From positions 1 through 44,923 of the forward strand of contig CAMJKD010000010.1 of NCBI GenBank assembly GCA_946406315.1: a stretch of 44,923 nucleotides of DNA, written 5' to 3'. A program made the position numbers and the translations under genes. This document shows positions 3,195 through 11,240 of this stretch, one piece after another. Within the stretch, counting starts at the first letter, position 1. Each line of letters opens with the position of its first letter. The stretch is from an uncultured Candidatus Saccharibacteria bacterium (GTDB lineage: Bacteria; Patescibacteriota; Saccharimonadia; Saccharimonadales; Saccharimonadaceae). Below the pieces are notes generated by a model that saw only the letters and a program-made list of their open reading frames with translations, searched no databases and was not told the origin of the DNA.

Positions 3195-4061
3195 ATGATA
3201 TTGCTCGATGATGTCGTCAAGTTGTATCCCGGCGATAAAGTACCTGCGCTTGATCATGTTTCTTTGTCTGTTAAGCCAAAGGAATTCGTATTTTTAGTCG
3301 GTCGTTCTGGCGCCGGTAAGTCGACTTTAATTAAGATGCTAACTCGCGAAGAAAAGCCTACGTCTGGCAAAATTATGGTTGGCGGTATCGATTATGATTA
3401 TCTCAAGAAGCGCCACATCCCGCATCTTCGTCGCCGTATTGGTGTTGTTTTTCAGGATTTTAAGCTTTTACCAAATCGTACTGTCTACGAAAATGTTGCA
3501 TTTGCACTTGAAATTGTTGGTGTCTCAAATGCTGAGATTAAGCGTACCGTACCAAAGGTTCTTGAACTGGTTGGTTTAGCGGATAAAGGTCATAAGTTCC
3601 CATCTGAACTGTCTGGCGGTGAGCGCCAACGCGTAGCGATTGCGCGTTCAATGGCGCGCCAGCCGAAAATTCTTATTGCCGACGAGCCTACTGGTAACCT
3701 TGACCCAGAAACGTCTTGGGGGATCGTCCGTTTACTTGAAGAAATTAATAATTTCGGTACGACTATTTTGATTACTACTCATGATGAGCAAATCGTAAAT
3801 CAATTGCGCAAGCGCGTCATTACGATTCGCAACGGCAAGATGATTGGCGACCAAAAGAATGATGGTCATTATGACCTTGACGCTGTGCGTACGCGTATCG
3901 TCAAACGCCCACTCGCTACCACGCAGCGTACGGCGCCGACTGCCGAGGAAATTCGTCGCGCCACCAATACTCGACCAGTTCCGCAAAGTACTGCGCAGAC
4001 ACAACCTGTCGTACCGCAGCAACCACAAGCAAAACCAGCACCTAGAAGGAGAGTGATATAA
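3195..4061 (+). CDS. ftsE: cell division ATP-binding protein FtsE
   Basis: FtsE is the ABC ATPase of the FtsEX complex, which couples ATP hydrolysis at the divisome to activation of peptidoglycan hydrolases outside the membrane. Visible motifs are Walker A GRSGAGKST (36-44), the Q-loop VVFQDFKLLP, the signature LSGGERQR, Walker B ILIADEPTGNLD and the switch His in TTHDEQ. Homologues are about 220-230 residues. This one has 288 because of a Pro/Gln/Thr-rich low-complexity tail over roughly the last 55 residues, ending in a basic PAPRRRVI. It is followed after one base by ftsX. Confidence 0.96.
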   Translation: MILLDDVVKLYPGDKVPALDHVSLSVKPKEFVFLVGRSGAGKSTLIKMLTREEKPTSGKIMVGGIDYDYLKKRHIPHLRRRIGVVFQDFKLLPNRTVYENVAFALEIVGVSNAEIKRTVPKVLELVGLADKGHKFPSELSGGERQRVAIARSMARQPKILIADEPTGNLDPETSWGIVRLLEEINNFGTTILITTHDEQIVNQLRKRVITIRNGKMIGDQKNDGHYDLDAVRTRIVKRPLATTQRTAPTAEEIRRATNTRPVPQSTAQTQPVVPQQPQAKPAPRRRVI

Positions 4062-4062
4062 T

Positions 4063-5097
4063 ATGACCGCCGTTAGAAAAACTCCACAAGAGAAGGCGGA
4101 AGCTAAAAAGACCGCCGCAATCAGTAAGGAGCGCCTCAAACGTATTGCTAAAACTCGCCGTCATCATTTGCGCAACGGTCATCGCGTTATTAAATATGGC
4201 GCCAAGAGCTTTGTTCGCAATACTTGGCTTAGTGTAGCTGCTATCGCAATTATGGTGGTAACACTCGTTGTGCTTTCCGCGACCTTAATTGCCGCAAAAG
4301 CAATGGATTCGGCAATCTCACAAATACGCAATCAGGTTGATATCTCCATCTACTTAAAGCAGGGCGCCACCAACGCTCAGGTTGTCGATACTGCAATGAA
4401 GATTAAAAATCTCGAAGGCGTTTCCGAGGTTACCATTCTATCGCCAGAAGAAGCTAACAAGAAGATTAACGACAAAATTATTAGCGAATTCAATATTACC
4501 GATGAAGATTTAATTAAGACCATGCACGAGGCTCCAAATAAGATTGCCTGGACGCTTAATGTGAAAATGAATGACCTCAATGAGACCGATGCGCTTGAAA
4601 AATTCGTGAATGAAACCGAATCTATTCAAGAATTACTAGACGAAACGAAGAAGCCTACCTATGCCTCCAGCCATCGCCAAACGATTAAAAATATTGCTGA
4701 CATTATGAATAAAGTCCAAATTGTAGGCTTATCGGCAGCGGCAGTATTTGCTGTAATTGCAATTTTAGTAGTCCTCAATACTATTCGCATGGCTATCTTT
4801 AACCGCAAGGAAGAAATCTATATGATGCGCCTCGTTGGTGCTAGTCGCTGGTTTATAGTTGGTCCATTCGTCGTTGAAGCTAGTATTTATGGTATCGTGG
4901 CAGCTATCGTCGCATCAATCGCAATCTACGCTACGGTTTATGGCATTCGCGGCCAGTTTGATGGTATGCTAGACTCAACCTATGACTTAATGGTACGATA
5001 TTGGTACTGTATTGTGGCGGCATTAATAGTAGTAGGCACTGTCATCGGTATCGTTTCTGCACTACTGGCGACCAAGAAATATCTGAAACAGAAATAA
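4063..5097 (+). CDS. ftsX: cell division permease-like protein FtsX
   Basis: FtsX is the membrane partner of FtsE. The 344 residues show a basic cytoplasmic N-terminus of about 50 residues, a first membrane helix (residues about 54-78, WLSVAAIAIMVVTLVVLSA), a large outside loop (the hydrolase-binding ECD) and three C-terminal helices (about 222-245, 265-290, 312-338). The segment MRLVGASRWFI is typical of FtsX. A good ribosome binding site (AAGGAGAG) precedes the ATG, unlike the leaderless ftsE. The order ftsE-ftsX-CHAP hydrolase matches the FtsEX/PcsB logic of Gram-positive bacteria. Confidence 0.95.
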   Translation: MTAVRKTPQEKAEAKKTAAISKERLKRIAKTRRHHLRNGHRVIKYGAKSFVRNTWLSVAAIAIMVVTLVVLSATLIAAKAMDSAISQIRNQVDISIYLKQGATNAQVVDTAMKIKNLEGVSEVTILSPEEANKKINDKIISEFNITDEDLIKTMHEAPNKIAWTLNVKMNDLNETDALEKFVNETESIQELLDETKKPTYASSHRQTIKNIADIMNKVQIVGLSAAAVFAVIAILVVLNTIRMAIFNRKEEIYMMRLVGASRWFIVGPFVVEASIYGIVAAIVASIAIYATVYGIRGQFDGMLDSTYDLMVRYWYCIVAALIVVGTVIGIVSALLATKKYLKQK

Positions 5098-5114
5098 ACA
5101 AGATGAAAACTAAG

Positions 5115-5140
5115 GACTTGGCTACTTGCCAAGTCTTTTT
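5115..5140 (+). terminator. rho-independent terminator after ftsX
   Basis: A 7-bp stem GACTTGG / CCAAGTC with a 7-base loop is followed directly by TTTTT. It ends only 8 bases before the -10 box of the next gene, so terminator and promoter share the 64-base intergenic gap. Confidence 0.8.
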
Positions 5141-5148
5141 GCTTATGC

Positions 5149-5154
5149 TATAGT
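5149..5154 (+). promoter_or_regulatory. -10 box of the PcsB-like gene, leaderless
   Basis: TATAGT ends 7 bases before ATG 5162. This selects 5162 over an upstream in-frame ATG at 5126 that lies inside the terminator loop. Confidence 0.6.
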
Positions 5155-5161
5155 ACCAATT

Positions 5162-6328
5162 ATGAAAATCTGGCGCAACATATCCTACTTGACAGTCGCT
5201 GCGGCGATTCTCCTTACTAGTTTTACCTCAATTCCAGCTTTAGCAATCGATGCAGGTAAGCTTAAAAATGATCTCAATTCCGTTAATTCGAAAATTACCG
5301 AATTAACCGATCAGATTAATGCATACGAAAAAGAGGCTAACGAACTTGCGAGGCAAGCCGACTCGATATCTAAGCAGATTGCTATTCTACAAAATCAGCA
5401 AGACAAATTAAAAAAGCAGATCGAACTAAAACAGGCCGAGCATGATCAAATTGTCTTAGAAATTGAGGCAGTTCAAAAACGCATTAATGATAACTATGAA
5501 ATAATTGGATACGTTATTGCGCAGTACTATTACAATGACGGCGTTTCCACTATTGAACGTATCGCATCGTCGGAAAGCTTCTCGTCTTTTGTAAACGAGG
5601 AAGCACAACTTAGTAGTATTTCGGACACTCTTGGCGAGATCGTTGAGGAGAATAAAGCACTGAAAGAAAGTTTGATTCAGAAAAAGAAACGTGCCGAGCA
5701 AATCTTGGCTGACCTTGATGCGCAAAAGCAACAACTTGCTGCTACGGAAAAGCAACAGCAAGAATTACTAGCCGAAACACGCAATAATGAAAGTAAATAC
5801 AACAGCTTAAAGAGCAGTGCCTCGAAAGAGCGTAAGGAACTTGAAGCGCAGCAGCAAGCTATCTTGCAAGAGTTAGCTAAACAATATAGTGCATCCGGTG
5901 AAACGTCTGGCGATCCGAGCAAAGGCAGCTATCCGTATAGCGGTCAGTGCCCAGCTGCAAGTCTGAATGGTACACAGTATGCCGATCAATGGGGTATGTA
6001 TATTTGCGAGTGTGTGAGTTATGCTGCCTGGAAAGTATTTCAGACTTATGGCTATATGCCATATTGGGGCGGCCGCGGCAATGCTTCTCAATGGCCGGCA
6101 AATGCTCGTGCTGCTGGCTACACGGTCAGTAGTGTCCCGCGCGCTAAATCGGTTGGCATTTCTCAAAGTGGTCCTTATGGGCACGCCGTCTGGGTAGAAG
6201 CAGTTAGCGGCAATCGTGTTTATATCTCGCAATATAACGCCGCCAATGAAGCTACGAACTGGGTGATGGGTCAATACTCCGAACAATGGGTTGATCAAGG
6301 CGCCTACGTCTATATCTACTTCAAGTAG
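5162..6328 (+). CDS. secreted coiled-coil CHAP peptidoglycan hydrolase (PcsB-like)
   Basis: Probable FtsEX-activated cell wall hydrolase. The 388 residues begin with a signal peptide (basic MKIWR, hydrophobic 8-25, cleavage likely after ALA near residue 28). A long coiled coil covers about 32-245, the part that in PcsB and CwlO/RipC-type proteins contacts the FtsX outer loop. The C-terminal CHAP domain runs from about 262 to 388. The candidate catalytic Cys is C284 in YICECVSYAAW (C282 is an alternative) and the His is H341 in GPYGHAVWVEAV. Position directly after ftsEX supports the assignment. It has its own leaderless promoter, so it can be expressed separately from ftsEX. Confidence 0.88.
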   Translation: MKIWRNISYLTVAAAILLTSFTSIPALAIDAGKLKNDLNSVNSKITELTDQINAYEKEANELARQADSISKQIAILQNQQDKLKKQIELKQAEHDQIVLEIEAVQKRINDNYEIIGYVIAQYYYNDGVSTIERIASSESFSSFVNEEAQLSSISDTLGEIVEENKALKESLIQKKKRAEQILADLDAQKQQLAATEKQQQELLAETRNNESKYNSLKSSASKERKELEAQQQAILQELAKQYSASGETSGDPSKGSYPYSGQCPAASLNGTQYADQWGMYICECVSYAAWKVFQTYGYMPYWGGRGNASQWPANARAAGYTVSSVPRAKSVGISQSGPYGHAVWVEAVSGNRVYISQYNAANEATNWVMGQYSEQWVDQGAYVYIYFK

Positions 6329-6338
6329 TATATTGTGC

Positions 6339-6344
6339 TAAAAT
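6339..6344 (+). promoter_or_regulatory. -10 box of the S41 protease gene, leaderless
   Basis: TAAAAT ends 6 bases before ATG 6351. Confidence 0.6.
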
Positions 6345-6350
6345 ATTCTT

Positions 6351-7589
6351 ATGGCTAATAAAACTGCGAATCAATCCAACCCTACGCGCTCTCTTTATGA
6401 TGCGGCGCCAATGGCAGAGAAAAAAGTAAATCTATCCACTATGATTATCGTCGCGTTTATTACGATGGCGATTGGCGTAATTGTCGGGGCGAACTTTAAC
6501 CGAATTAGTAATTCTGTCAACGTAGCGCTTGGCAGCAAAACTGCTCAAGAAATCGATTTCAGCTCATTAAACGATCTCTATAAAGAGCTATCGGTTAATT
6601 TTAATGGTAATCTTGATAAGAAGAAAATTCTCGAAGAAGCCAAGCGCGGTCTCGTAAATGGTGCTAATGATAAATACACTTATTATTTAACTAAAGAAGA
6701 AACCGAGGAATTTGACAAAGAACTCGAGGGTGACGTTGGTGCCGGTATTGGTGTTGAAATTGGCGAACGCGATGGTGTAGTAAAAGTATTGCGTACTACG
6801 CCAGACAATCCTGCGCGCAAAGCTGGCGTACTCGCGGGCGATATTATATACAAAGCCGACGATCAAGATATTAGTATGCTTAAAGTTGAGGATATTGCTA
6901 AAAAACTTCGCGGCGCTGCCGGTACGAAAGTAAAACTTACGGTCGTCCGTAATAATGAGGAAAAATCCTTTGAACTTACGCGCGAAACAATTAATAACGT
7001 TAGCGTCTATTCGGACTATAAGGATGATACGGCTATCATTACCATTACTCGCTTCGATAGTGATACCGGAAAACTTGCACGCGAAAAAGCTCAAGAAGCC
7101 GTCGATAAAAAAGTTAAAAAAGTTATTATCGATTTACGTGGTAATGGCGGTGGTTATGTTTCGGCTGCTAAGGAGGTCGCATCGCTTTGGGTTGATGGTG
7201 GCAAATTAATTGTTGAGCAAAAATCACAAAATAATCTTTATAACGAAAAAATTAATGCTCAAACCGGCAAAACAATATTAAAAGATATGAAAACCATTGT
7301 TTTAATCAATGGCTCTACCGCATCGGCATCTGAAATTGTAGCTGGCGCCCTCAGAGATTATGGTTTAGCTAAACTTGTTGGAGAGAAGACTTACGGCAAA
7401 GGAAGCGTGCAGGCGCTCGAGAAAATCGGTGGCGGCGAAACATTACGCGTCACGGTTGCGAAATGGTACACACCAAAAGGCAAGAATATTGACGGCGAAG
7501 GCATTAAGCCGGATAAAGAAGTTGAACGTACTTTTGACCAAATTAACAAGGAAATCGATCCACAACTCGAAGCAGCACTCAAAGAATAA
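6351..7589 (+). CDS. S41 family C-terminal processing protease
   Basis: Serine protease of the CtpA/Prc family, anchored in the membrane and acting outside it. The 412 residues show an N-terminal membrane helix (about 30-48), a PDZ domain at about 122-205 and a C-terminal S41 catalytic domain. The likely Ser/Lys dyad is S325 in GSTASASEIV and K350 in GEKTYGKGSVQ; their 25-residue spacing equals that of the E. coli Prc dyad. In other bacteria such proteases trim secreted proteins and peptidoglycan hydrolases, so its place next to the PcsB-like hydrolase suggests, without proving, that hydrolase as a substrate. Confidence 0.93.
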   Translation: MANKTANQSNPTRSLYDAAPMAEKKVNLSTMIIVAFITMAIGVIVGANFNRISNSVNVALGSKTAQEIDFSSLNDLYKELSVNFNGNLDKKKILEEAKRGLVNGANDKYTYYLTKEETEEFDKELEGDVGAGIGVEIGERDGVVKVLRTTPDNPARKAGVLAGDIIYKADDQDISMLKVEDIAKKLRGAAGTKVKLTVVRNNEEKSFELTRETINNVSVYSDYKDDTAIITITRFDSDTGKLAREKAQEAVDKKVKKVIIDLRGNGGGYVSAAKEVASLWVDGGKLIVEQKSQNNLYNEKINAQTGKTILKDMKTIVLINGSTASASEIVAGALRDYGLAKLVGEKTYGKGSVQALEKIGGGETLRVTVAKWYTPKGKNIDGEGIKPDKEVERTFDQINKEIDPQLEAALKE

Positions 7590-7594
7590 TTTGT

Positions 7595-7600
7595 TATACT
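7595..7600 (+). promoter_or_regulatory. -10 box before the KwaB-like/TatD operon
   Basis: TATACT lies 21 bases before ATG 7622, and an AAGGAGG ribosome binding site sits between them. Unlike its neighbours, this unit has a short 5' leader. Confidence 0.55.
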
Positions 7601-7621
7601 AGGTAAGTAAAAGGAGGCAAA

Positions 7622-8596
7622 ATGGAACAACCAGAATTTGACGTATTTCAGTGGGCAAACTCCGTCGATGAAGTAAAAAATAACATTTCGGTAGAATTAT
7701 TCTTATTTAATAAAAACTATACCCCATACAAGGTGCGCTATAGCGATGTTTTGATGCAGACAATTCGCTCCATGTTTATGTTGGAAGCGGTCGAATATGT
7801 CATTAAAGAGGCCGATAAAGGCCTTGAATGTCGCGAATACGAACTATCCGACGGTGAAGATAAGGTTATTTATCGCATTAATCTAGATAAGGTCGGTCGC
7901 GCCGAGACGCTCATTCATCTCATTGAAAATGAATATAAAGACATTGCTTTCTTTACTGATAACGAATATGAGTTTAAGCGTATTAAAGGTATTGTTGCCA
8001 AGTTTACTTACCCTGGCGATGAAGGTCAAAAGACTTTCTATATTGCCAAAGGTCTAGCCGCCAGCTCTGCGCTCAAGGGTAAATTAAGTTGGGAGCTCAA
8101 TGGTGAAAGTTTTGAGCCACTTACTGCCGATGTTGCCATCAAGGTTCCAGAAGGCAACGAAACAGCTATCATTGACGGTAATATTGTTATCTTTAATCAG
8201 TCTAAATTTGAAAAATTGTTCCAGTATGACTATAAGCAGCAAGTCATTTCTGAGCAAAAAGCAAAGGAATTGCAGGACGCTTATAGTCTTAGCTTTCCAG
8301 AGGGGTTGACACTCAACGCTTTGCTCGAAGACAAGAAGCCATTAGTAAAGAAACTGCAAGCGGTTGAAATTGGCGAGATGAAACAAGATCAACTTCTTGA
8401 TTACGCGGACGAAATGCAGCTCGAACTTATGACTGACGATCAGGGTAAGATTATTATCATGGACGACAAAGATCTGAATATGTTCGTAAATTTGCTCAGT
8501 GAAGATTACTTTGTTTCCCCAGTAAATGGTCGCCGCTATGAGATTAAGAGCAAAAAACTCCTTGACGACCCAGAGGGAGAGCCACCGCGCGGCTAA
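7622..8596 (+). CDS. DUF4868 (KwaB-like) protein
   Basis: The 324 residues match the layout I know for DUF4868, the family that includes KwaB of the Kiwa phage defence system. There is a variable N-terminal alpha/beta part, then a core with AKFTYPGDEGQKTFYIAKGL, a strand-turn segment with IIDGNIVIFNQSKFEKLFQY, a helical linker, and a C-terminal block LLSEDYFVSPVNGRRYEIKSK that resembles the SD-V-T-G-x-x-Y ending of the family. No membrane segment. A full Kiwa system also needs the membrane sensor KwaA, and none is nearby. It has a strong AAGGAGG site and heads a four-gene operon with TatD. The assignment is from remembered patterns and needs a profile search. Confidence 0.6.
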   Translation: MEQPEFDVFQWANSVDEVKNNISVELFLFNKNYTPYKVRYSDVLMQTIRSMFMLEAVEYVIKEADKGLECREYELSDGEDKVIYRINLDKVGRAETLIHLIENEYKDIAFFTDNEYEFKRIKGIVAKFTYPGDEGQKTFYIAKGLAASSALKGKLSWELNGESFEPLTADVAIKVPEGNETAIIDGNIVIFNQSKFEKLFQYDYKQQVISEQKAKELQDAYSLSFPEGLTLNALLEDKKPLVKKLQAVEIGEMKQDQLLDYADEMQLELMTDDQGKIIIMDDKDLNMFVNLLSEDYFVSPVNGRRYEIKSKKLLDDPEGEPPRG

Positions 8597-8601
8597 TTAA
8601 A

Positions 8602-9354
8602 ATGCTAGTCGATTCGCACTGTCATATCCACAATAAAGGATATTTCGAGCTCGCGCCAGATGAGATTCTCCAACACGCGCATAAAAATGGAGTGGATAAA
8701 TGTATTGTCATTGGTACTGATCCGAAAGATTCCGAAGTTGCCTGCAAATTTGCCCTCCAGCATAAAGAGGTTTGGTGGACTTATGGCTATCATCCGAACG
8801 ATTATGATGGCAATAAAGCAAAACTTGAATCGGACCTCAAAAAAGCCAAAAATAACGTTCTAAAGAGCGAAAAACTGGTAGCCATCGGCGAAATTGGGCT
8901 CGATTATCATTTTGACGGTTATAATCGCGATTGGCAGGCATATTTATTAGAAAATATGTTACAAATTGCGCAAGATATGCAATTACCGGTTAGTTTTCAT
9001 ATTCGAGACGCTTTTGATGATTTTTGGCCAATTTTTGATAATTTTCACCTTCCTACCTCTGTTTTGCACTCATATTCAGATAGCGAAGAAAACCTCGAAA
9101 AAGGCATAGCCAAGGGCTTTTTCTTCGGCGTAAATGGGCTTTCGACCTTTGCGCAGATTCCGCACCCACCTCTGGAAAGGATAATCTTAGAAACTGATGC
9201 CCCCTTCTTGACACCAAAGCCATTTCGTGGTACAATTAATAAACCGGGCTATGTAAAAAACATAGCTGACTGGGCAGCAGAATATTATCAAGTAGCCTTC
9301 GATCAAGTTGCCGCAATTACTACGGCGAATGTCGAAAAGCTATTTAAAATCTAA
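8602..9354 (+). CDS. tatD: TatD family metal-dependent hydrolase
   Basis: TatD proteins are TIM-barrel, divalent-metal-dependent nucleases. The 250 residues contain the metal ligands in order: DSHCHIH at the N-terminus, the Glu of GEIGLDYH, a His in SFHIRDA, a His in VLHSYSD, and the Asp of LETDAPFL. The segment between the last two motifs is shorter than usual, and most of the strand and helix before LETDAP is missing. There is no clear ribosome binding site. The start is 5 bases after the previous stop, so translation is probably coupled to the KwaB-like gene. Confidence 0.9.
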   Translation: MLVDSHCHIHNKGYFELAPDEILQHAHKNGVDKCIVIGTDPKDSEVACKFALQHKEVWWTYGYHPNDYDGNKAKLESDLKKAKNNVLKSEKLVAIGEIGLDYHFDGYNRDWQAYLLENMLQIAQDMQLPVSFHIRDAFDDFWPIFDNFHLPTSVLHSYSDSEENLEKGIAKGFFFGVNGLSTFAQIPHPPLERIILETDAPFLTPKPFRGTINKPGYVKNIADWAAEYYQVAFDQVAAITTANVEKLFKI

Positions 9355-9365
9355 GGAGGCTGATT

Positions 9366-9686
9366 ATGTACGAAAACACAAATGTCGATTCCGCATTTCA
9401 TATTCCTGTTTCGAGCGCAATAAAGGCTGCCGTCGAAGAGGCAGAACAAAAGAAGCAGCAAGTCGTAGCGCCTGTCGCTAATCCGACATCCGCCAATCCT
9501 ATTCCTTCGCCGGCTGTTTCTGCAGCACAAACTACGCCAGTTCAGGCCGTTGAAGCTTCGTCTTTTGTGCCCATACAATACTCCGCAAAAGCCTCTTATG
9601 ATGATAAGATGCTCTATAAAGAACTAAGTGCTGTATCTGATGAGGTACTCGAATGTCGAAACAAAATCTTAAACAACGTCTATTAA
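9366..9686 (+). CDS. hypothetical Ala/Pro/Val-rich protein
   Basis: Unrecognised, 106 residues. Residues 1-30 form a possible amphipathic helix, 30-70 are a low-complexity Ala/Pro/Thr/Val linker, and 75-106 a charged helix (MLYKELSAVSDEVLECRNKI). The start has a strong ribosome binding site (AAGGAGGC). It follows tatD by 11 bases and its last 34 bases overlap the next gene in another frame, which supports joint translation. The shape (helix, linker, helix) suggests a scaffold or partner-binding protein; no enzyme motif is visible. Confidence 0.7.
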   Translation: MYENTNVDSAFHIPVSSAIKAAVEEAEQKKQQVVAPVANPTSANPIPSPAVSAAQTTPVQAVEASSFVPIQYSAKASYDDKMLYKELSAVSDEVLECRNKILNNVY

Positions 9687-10021
9687 AATCAATTCGATCA
9701 ACCACTGCGCGCCCAAACGAAGAAGCGCGTCGCAAATCGGTTGAACGTGATTTAATTAACGCCGAATCCGCACTTGGGCGTACGCTTTTTGGTGAGGTAA
9801 AACGTGGTCATGCGCGCGAATTCTTTTGCTTGAAGAAAAATGTTTGGCTTTGGTATGAAGACGGTTTAATGATTCGCTATGAAGTACGCGAAAACGGCGT
9901 GTATAAACAGGTCGGCAAGAATGATAGTTATCACAAGGTCACTGGGGAAGAGCTAGAAAATTTCCGCAACGCTACTAAAGCTTATCTAAGGCTAATCAAG
10001 ACTCGTATTTATAATAACTAA
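9653..10021 (+). CDS. hypothetical basic protein (122 aa)
   Basis: Unrecognised. It is rich in Arg and Lys, with a helical N-terminus (LKQRLLKSIRS) and a compact aromatic C-terminal half (FFCLKKNVWLWYEDGLMIRYEVRENG) that looks like a small beta sheet, then a final helix. It overlaps the previous gene by 34 bases and is last in the operon that begins with the KwaB-like gene. The basic character would allow nucleic-acid contact, but nothing proves it. No terminator follows; the next promoter begins about 50 bases later. Confidence 0.75.
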   Translation: MSKQNLKQRLLKSIRSTTARPNEEARRKSVERDLINAESALGRTLFGEVKRGHAREFFCLKKNVWLWYEDGLMIRYEVRENGVYKQVGKNDSYHKVTGEELENFRNATKAYLRLIKTRIYNN

Positions 10022-10085: not shown

Positions 10086-11240
10086 ATGATCTATCTAGAC
10101 TACGCCGCAGCAACTCCGCTTTCCGAGAAAGCGTTAAAGGCTATGTTGCCATATTTTAGCGAAGAATTTTTCAATCCTTCCGCCGCCTATTTGCCGGCCG
10201 TACATGTGCGACGCGCTTATGAAAAAGCGAAGGACGATATCGCGCACGTAATAGGCGCGAAGGGGGCGGATTTGGTCATAACTTCCGGCGCGACGGAGTC
10301 TATCAACCTGGCTTTTTCTATTATTTCTACTAATTCCGATGCCGAAGTTCTGATTTCTGCCACTGAACATCCTGCCGTTCTAGAAAATGCCAAAAGAGCA
10401 GGGAATTATCAAGTTATCGAAGTCAATCAATATGGTCGTGTGGATCTTGAAGATTTTAAAGCTAAACTAACGCCTAAGACACAATTTGTATCAATTTGCC
10501 TTGTATCGTCCGAACTTGGCACAATTCAGCCAATATCAGATTTAGCTCGCATTATAAATGAAGAACGTCAGCGCCGAGCTTTTGCTGGCGAAACGATGCC
10601 GCTTTATTTTCATACTGACGCTTCTCAAGGTCTCGGTCTAATAGAGGTGAAGCTAAATCGCCTTGGCGTAGATTTGCTGACACTTAATGCGGCAAAAGTC
10701 TACGGACCTAAAGGAATTGGCGCCCTCTATGTCGGGCGCAATGTTAAACTTCGACCACTTGCAGTCGGCGGCGGACAAGAAATGGGTTTACGGAGCGGTA
10801 CGGAAAACGTCCCCGCCACTATCGCCTTTGCTACGGCGATTACGGAGGCTGAGAAACATTTGAATAGTGAGCGCAAACGACTTCAGGAACTGAAGTGTAA
10901 ATTTCGTAATAGTCTTTCGGATTTACCAAATATCCGTTTCTTAGGCAAAGAAAAAGTCCAGCTAGCTAGCTTTCTGCCAATTTCCTTGCCAGGCCTTGAT
11001 GCTGAGCGCCTAATTTATGCATTGGAGGATAAAGAAGTTTATCTATCAACGGGCGCTGCCTGTGCGGCGAGTAAAGGAATTAAATCCCCAACCCTAGTTG
11101 CAATCGGTCTTTCCGATTCTGAAATTTCTGGTTCACTACGCATTACGATGGGGGAGGGTACTGATGAAGCAGCTATCGAGGCGGCAAATCAAGCGATTCA
11201 CGAAGTCGTAGAGGCTGAATTATCCCGTTTAGCTAAATAG
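10086..11240 (+). CDS. cysteine desulfurase (NifS/IscS family)
   Basis: PLP enzyme that moves sulfur from cysteine to a catalytic Cys persulfide. The 384 residues show the N-terminal YLDYAAATP block, H94 in ATEHPAV, D178 and Q181 in HTDASQG, the PLP lysine K204 in LNAAKVYGPKG, the RSGTEN block, and the catalytic Cys C326 in STGAACAASKG. The residue before the PLP lysine is Ala where most IscS/NifS proteins have His. No IscU or SUF scaffold is in the window. MnmA, encoded 6 kb away, needs a sulfur donor, so feeding tRNA thiolation is a reasonable role. Confidence 0.92.
   Translation: MIYLDYAAATPLSEKALKAMLPYFSEEFFNPSAAYLPAVHVRRAYEKAKDDIAHVIGAKGADLVITSGATESINLAFSIISTNSDAEVLISATEHPAVLENAKRAGNYQVIEVNQYGRVDLEDFKAKLTPKTQFVSICLVSSELGTIQPISDLARIINEERQRRAFAGETMPLYFHTDASQGLGLIEVKLNRLGVDLLTLNAAKVYGPKGIGALYVGRNVKLRPLAVGGGQEMGLRSGTENVPATIAFATAITEAEKHLNSERKRLQELKCKFRNSLSDLPNIRFLGKEKVQLASFLPISLPGLDAERLIYALEDKEVYLSTGAACAASKGIKSPTLVAIGLSDSEISGSLRITMGEGTDEAAIEAANQAIHEVVEAELSRLAK

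What the first reader, a model, noticed from the sequence alone, without database searches (positions are those of the whole stretch)
7595..10021. Orphan KwaB-like protein in an operon with TatD and two small unknowns
The first gene fits DUF4868, the family of the Kiwa effector KwaB, but no KwaA membrane sensor is nearby. It is cotranscribed with a TatD nuclease (5-base gap) and two short proteins (11-base gap, then a 34-base overlap). A DNA-interacting KwaB-type protein linked to a nuclease and small partners could be an undescribed minimal defence or DNA-processing unit in a genome too small for standard systems. The unit also has its own leadered promoter among leaderless neighbours.
Basis: inference. 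Interest (0 to 1): 0.6.

Follow-up and report, generated by a model that had tools for sequence, protein, structure and literature searches.

The report
Core KwaB-like gene without its Kiwa partner
Tiny parasitic Saccharibacteria carry, as a slowly evolving chromosomal gene, a relative of KwaB, the DNA-binding effector of the Kiwa anti-phage system; it has no KwaA partner, in most relatives it sits beside a Pif1 DNA helicase, and it looks more like a housekeeping DNA-handling protein than a defence unit with TatD.

Summary
ORF 7622-8596 encodes a true member of the KwaB/DUF4868 family (Pfam above cut-off; predicted fold best matches solved Kiwa KwaB), and the four-gene spacing is as stated. 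No KwaA is found in this genome. The proposed defence unit with TatD is not supported: TatD-orf4, usually with NifS, is an old block that exists without kwaB elsewhere in the family, and kwaB joined it only in this genus. Instead kwaB behaves as a core gene: about 92% of sampled genomes of its family carry it, nearly always once, with dN/dS about 0.03, three to seven times lower than its neighbours. It was not found outside the order in the phylum sample, nor in viral contigs or plasmids. In most other genera it lies upstream of a Pif1-like helicase (63 of 69 listed genomes with both genes, four families), often with RNase HI nearby. Real kwaA-kwaB pairs occur in two Saccharibacteria inside restriction islands; one of those genomes also keeps the core copy beside its helicase. 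Best reading: a KwaB-fold DNA- or fork-binding protein serving genome maintenance, ancestrally alongside Pif1. That function is inferred, not shown.

The parts
7592..7600 (+). extended -10 element TGTTATACT of the kwaB promoter
   Evidence: read directly; a TGnTAxAxT-like element recurs at the same place in most relatives read from genera g1 and g27
7613..7617 (+). Shine-Dalgarno GGAGG, 4 bases before the ATG
   Evidence: conserved in relatives
7622..8596 (+). KwaB/DUF4868-family protein, 324 aa; the central feature
   Evidence: PF16162 2.2e-9, PADLOC KwaB 3e-10, fold match to solved KwaB, core gene, dN/dS 0.031
8564..8593 (+). codons of the conserved C-terminal tail DDPEGEPPRG
   Evidence: near-invariant in most of family f1, absent in the other families
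8602..9354 (+). TatD-family nuclease, general type; genus-level neighbour only
   Evidence: PF01026 3.4e-61; separate from kwaB in the rest of the family
9366..9686 (+). orf3, small poorly conserved protein
   Evidence: no family; dN/dS 0.22, median identity 37%
9653..10021 (+). orf4, small basic protein (pI 10), widespread in the family
   Evidence: 91 of 119 family genomes; lies with TatD and usually NifS, not with kwaB, in the relatives read
3195..7589 (+). upstream housekeeping cluster: ftsE-like, ftsX-like, PcsB/CHAP hydrolase, S41/CtpA protease
   Evidence: FtsE and FtsX named from the sequence by inspection
10086..11240 (+). NifS/IscS-like aminotransferase class V, end of the TatD-orf4-NifS block
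   Evidence: PF00266 1.3e-57

Best explanation
ORF 7622-8596 is a KwaA-less KwaB-family protein that has become, or always was, a core chromosomal gene of Saccharibacteria. Shown: family membership and fold, near-universal single-copy presence in its family, strong purifying selection, absence of a recognisable KwaA in nearly all genomes, a widespread position upstream of a Pif1-like helicase and often near RNase HI, and a meeting with TatD in one genus only. Inferred: it keeps the KwaB ability to bind DNA without cutting it, as a dimer, and uses it on the cell's own DNA (forks, ends, R-loops or DNA taken up by competence), ancestrally in concert with Pif1; genera g1 and g27 lost the helicase and kept the protein. 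TatD, orf3 and orf4 are neighbours, not subunits.
For: Core distribution: 36 of 37 same-genus genomes; 199 of 294 order genomes, about 162 of 176 in the family; none outside the order in the phylum sample. Constraint: dN/dS 0.031 against 0.09-0.22 for six neighbours; identity 82-98% where TatD is 56-82%. Helicase link: downstream on the same strand within 5 kb in 63 of 69 listed genomes with both genes, in 34 of 40 loci read outside g1/g27, four families; PF05970 9e-36. RNase HI upstream in 17 of 40. No KwaA in 292 of 294. Fold. Kiwa KwaB binds DNA and does not cleave it (PMC12904381).
Against: No experiment shows any function or DNA binding. The helicase is missing from this genome and from genus g27, so the partnership is not obligatory, and the helicase is common without kwaB. 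Core, slowly evolving genes can still be defensive. The model is of middling confidence (pLDDT 72.8). The protein is acidic (pI 4.6), though four of five Kiwa KwaBs examined are too. kwaB and helicase distances correlate only moderately (r=0.68), which shared ancestry alone could give.
Confidence: 0.5

Rival explanations
1. A constitutive, KwaA-independent antiviral factor: a domesticated KwaB that binds incoming phage or plasmid DNA in all members of the family, replacing Kiwa.
For: Family and fold are those of an anti-phage effector. CRISPR-Cas is rare in these small-genome bacteria (abstracts listed), leaving room for generic protection. The KwaA-paired KwaB of G542 is closer to the core family than to Emticicia KwaB (133 against 35 bits).
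Against: Nearly universal single copy, dN/dS 0.03, among housekeeping genes, no link to defence islands or mobile elements seen. Kiwa KwaBs from three of the five loci sit on branches 4 to 10 changes long, and the Emticicia pair behind one of 5.7, against 0.05-0.5 within the core. Genuine Kiwa exists in addition in a genome that has the core gene.
Confidence: 0.2
2. A scaffold or regulatory protein that has lost DNA binding and acts in cell envelope or division, as its g1 neighbours ftsEX, PcsB and CtpA suggest.
For: In g1 it follows PcsB and CtpA, and in g29 the CHAP-S41 pair is again upstream (L068). The protein is acidic. A short tail DDPEGEPPRG is near-invariant in most of f1, as a protein-binding motif would be.
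Against: This context is absent in most genera, where the helicase and RNase HI are the recurrent neighbours. Conserved basic positions K119, R120, K122, K238, K239, K244 remain.
Confidence: 0.15
3. One reading: kwaB, TatD, orf3 and orf4 form one defence or DNA-processing unit.
For: Tight co-directional spacing in this genus.
Against: TatD-orf4 stands without kwaB in all eight relatives read at that locus, including one same-genus species; insertions separate kwaB from TatD in several g1 species; TatD scores far below the QatD cut-off; the neighbours evolve 3 to 7 times faster.
Confidence: 0.05

Closest known systems
KwaB of the Kiwa system (PDB 9mrx, 9mtn, 9nyu)
   Same: Pfam family, length, overall fold over residues 4-305, C-terminal region around F-x-x-L-x-x-D-Y-x-x-S-x-x-T-x-x-x-Y in the profile alignment
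   Different: about 14% identity, no KwaA, core and slowly evolving, near Pif1 in most relatives instead of kwaA; far below the NCBIfam KwaB equivalog cut-off (33 against 200 bits)
Genuine Kiwa pairs in Saccharibacteria (G542 L224, G568 L225)
   Same: same family of bacteria, same protein family
   Different: kwaA overlaps kwaB, loci lie beside restriction-modification genes, 2 of 294 genomes
QatD of the Qat system
   Same: TatD-family nuclease near a candidate defence gene
   Different: TatD here is the general type and scores 58 bits against a QatD cut-off of 230
Pif1 / RecD-type SF1B helicases
   Same: the conserved downstream gene in other genera (PF05970, Pif1_2B)
   Different: absent from the window's own genome

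Membership tests
KwaB / DUF4868 protein family (PF16162) | profile match above the curated cut-off | tested here: met
   38 bits against 26.3
KwaB / DUF4868 protein family (PF16162) | KwaB fold | tested here: met
   Foldseek E 2.4e-12 to 9mtn; VIA Z 15.5, rmsd 14.6, 270 residues, next unrelated row Z 3.5
Kiwa anti-phage system | KwaA membrane sensor encoded with kwaB | tested here: not met
   no NF041622 match in the genome; 2 of 294 in the order; the profile does find KwaA in G542 and G568, so it can ring in these bacteria
Kiwa anti-phage system | KwaB equivalog score (NF041623, 200 bits) | tested here: not met
   33.4 bits; but the KwaA-paired KwaB of G542 reaches only 65 bits and that of G568 has no match, so the cut-off is strict and this alone is weak
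Kiwa anti-phage system | patchy occurrence in defence islands or mobile elements | tested here: not met
   about 92% of family genomes, among housekeeping genes; none in viral contigs or plasmids
Kiwa anti-phage system | DNA binding and phage protection | not testable with these tools
   needs experiment
Qat system (QatD) | TatD protein above the QatD cut-off | tested here: not met
   58 bits against 230
Qat system (QatD) | QatA, QatB and QatC encoded beside it | tested here: not met
   immediate neighbours are CHAP, S41, KwaB-like, orf3, orf4 and NifS; PADLOC gives no Qat match for KwaB-like, orf3 or orf4

The most novel reading that the evidence does not exclude
Saccharibacteria possess a previously undescribed housekeeping branch of the KwaB family that works with a Pif1 helicase, and sometimes RNase HI, in replication-fork, R-loop or transformation DNA handling. 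The Kiwa effector would then be a recruited version of a DNA-maintenance protein, or the core gene a domesticated immune effector.
Probability: 0.35. Interest if true: 0.75.

Novelty: new variant of a known kind. Interest (0 to 1): 0.55.

Why it matters
It shows that a protein family known from one immune system can be a constrained core gene in a bacterial lineage, so finding KwaB is not in itself evidence of defence, and tools that flag KwaB alone would miscall these genomes. The conserved kwaB-pif1 neighbourhood gives a concrete handle on what the KwaB fold does to DNA, and on whether immune effectors come from, or turn into, genome-maintenance proteins. Saccharibacteria can be transformed and mutagenised (PMC10633639), so this can be tested.

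Tried and rejected
Close relatives in viral contigs, in plasmids by protein search, and of the G542 KwaB in plasmids and phages: none; no sign of mobility. Sequence search of PDB with the single protein: nothing; the profile gave Kiwa KwaB at E 0.02, so the fold search was needed. The G253, G322 and G365 hits below the Pfam cut-off did not return with the A1 profile. A 2-TM small protein downstream of kwaB, considered as a KwaA substitute, occurs in only about 4 of 37 same-genus loci. Low isoelectric point as an argument against DNA binding was dropped because most Kiwa KwaBs examined are acidic too. The primary Kiwa paper is not held, so its DNA-contact residues could not be mapped.

Full report
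What is there. The window reads truB-like, prfB-like, ftsE-like, ftsX-like, PcsB/CHAP hydrolase, S41/CtpA protease, kwaB-like, tatD, orf3, orf4, nifS, all on the plus strand (the first four named from the sequence by inspection). kwaB has its own extended -10 and Shine-Dalgarno, and this arrangement recurs in most relatives read from genera g1 and g27.

Family. The protein passes the Pfam KwaB cut-off and matches PADLOC KwaB models, but it is far below the NCBIfam KwaB equivalog cut-off. An AlphaFold2 model made from the window protein and GTDB-genome relatives (mean pLDDT 72.8) has six Foldseek matches at E below 0.001, all Kiwa KwaB. VIA gives Z 15.5, rmsd 14.6, 270 aligned residues over 4-305, next unrelated row Z 3.5. 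The high rmsd and modest TM-score fit different domain placement or the moderate model quality. There is no KwaA in this genome and one kwaB only.

Distribution and rate. 36 of 37 genomes of the genus carry it, at 82-98% identity. With a profile of 18 diverse members it is in 199 of 294 order genomes; by my count of that table, 162 of 176 in the family. None was found outside the order in a phylum-wide sample of 380 genomes. A scan of GTDB genomes gave 366 relatives; the 80 returned are nearly all labelled Saccharibacteria, many from ruminant guts. Median dN/dS against same-genus loci is 0.031 for kwaB and 0.09-0.22 for six neighbours, on pairs where dS is not saturated. dS is high (about 2), so the absolute values are rough; the contrast between genes is the point.

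Neighbours. The order CHAP-S41-kwaB-TatD-orf3-orf4-NifS is a feature of genus g1, with inserts between kwaB and TatD in several species. In seven genomes of other genera and in G002 of g1 itself, TatD and orf4 stand together, usually with NifS close by, at a locus without kwaB. So TatD is a housekeeping neighbour and kwaB the newcomer in that block.

The more widespread neighbour. Outside g1 and g27, a Pif1-like helicase (PF05970, Pif1_2B) lies within five ORFs downstream on the same strand in 34 of 40 loci read, in four families. Across, 63 of 69 genomes with both genes listed have it downstream on the same strand within 5 kb, gaps 4 to 4204 bases. Variable genes, often pilin-like, lie in the gap. 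RNase HI is upstream within five ORFs in 17 of 40. The helicase is missing in G000; no g27 genome and few g1 genomes appear among the helicase matches, so kwaB can do without it. The helicase also occurs where kwaB does not.

Natural control. KwaA was found in 2 of 294 genomes. In G542, kwaA (88 bits) overlaps a kwaB at L224 5483-6980, beside a type II methyltransferase, restriction enzyme, helicase and Vsr. In G568, kwaA (28 bits) overlaps a kwaB beside a type I restriction enzyme. G542 also has the core kwaB about 680 kb away on the same contig, followed by its helicase. So genuine Kiwa and the core gene are distinct loci. In a tree the core rows form one side of a branch, weakly (76/65), with short branches, against very long ones for Kiwa KwaBs, whose placement is therefore unsure. 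The G542 KwaA-paired KwaB is closer to the core family than to Emticicia KwaB by BLAST score, so a transition in one direction or the other is plausible.

Mechanism. Kiwa KwaB is a homodimer that binds injected DNA and does not cleave it (review PMC12904381); another review says its DNA-binding domain is inhibited by Gam-like DNA mimics (PMC12649759). By homology the core protein probably binds nucleic acid. Its near-universal presence, constraint and neighbourhood with Pif1 and RNase HI point to the cell's own DNA: forks, ends, R-loops, or DNA taken up by natural competence, which Saccharibacteria have (PMC10633639). These steps are inferred.

Novelty. No paper in the library searched describes DUF4868 in this setting, and none holds Pif1, helicase and Saccharibacteria together. 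The library lacks most subscription papers and preprints, so this is weak evidence of novelty. Group labels f1, g1 and so on are the tool's; the GTDB names were not available.

Noticed in passing
L224:5483-6980; L225:3335-4787: Genuine kwaA-kwaB pairs in two Saccharibacteria genomes, beside type II and type I restriction-modification genes.
   Followed up: yes
L067, L070, L072, L211, L212, L215, L216, between kwaB and the helicase: Variable pilin-like genes (N-terminal GFTIVELLIVIVV), mostly on the opposite strand, sit between kwaB and pif1; the gap looks like an insertion spot.
   Followed up: partly
L088:6990-7292; L111:7769-8137; L114:6998-7366; L122:7025-7456: Small proteins with two apparent membrane stretches directly downstream of kwaB in about four same-genus species; three are clear homologues of each other.
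   Followed up: partly
L104:7058-7750; L111:7012-7698: ORFs on the opposite strand between kwaB and TatD with an HExxH motif (HELFHAKH), a possible metallopeptidase.
   Followed up: no
window 9653-10021: orf4, a basic protein (pI 10) without any family, is in 91 of 119 family genomes and travels with TatD and usually NifS; an unnamed core gene of the family.
   Followed up: partly
window 8564-8593: C-terminal tail DDPEGEPPRG near-invariant in most of family f1 but absent in other families of the order.
   Followed up: no
L104, L112, L114, L121, L122 upstream of kwaB: Some same-genus kwaB genes have an in-frame N-terminal extension rich in Ser, Ala and Glu.
   Followed up: no
L235 (NZ_AP027882.1) and near-identical 4.8-5.3 kb plasmids: Small plasmids of E. 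coli, Salmonella and Dickeya carry a KwaB-like gene; in the one read, kwaA lies just before it, beside the replication gene.
   Followed up: no
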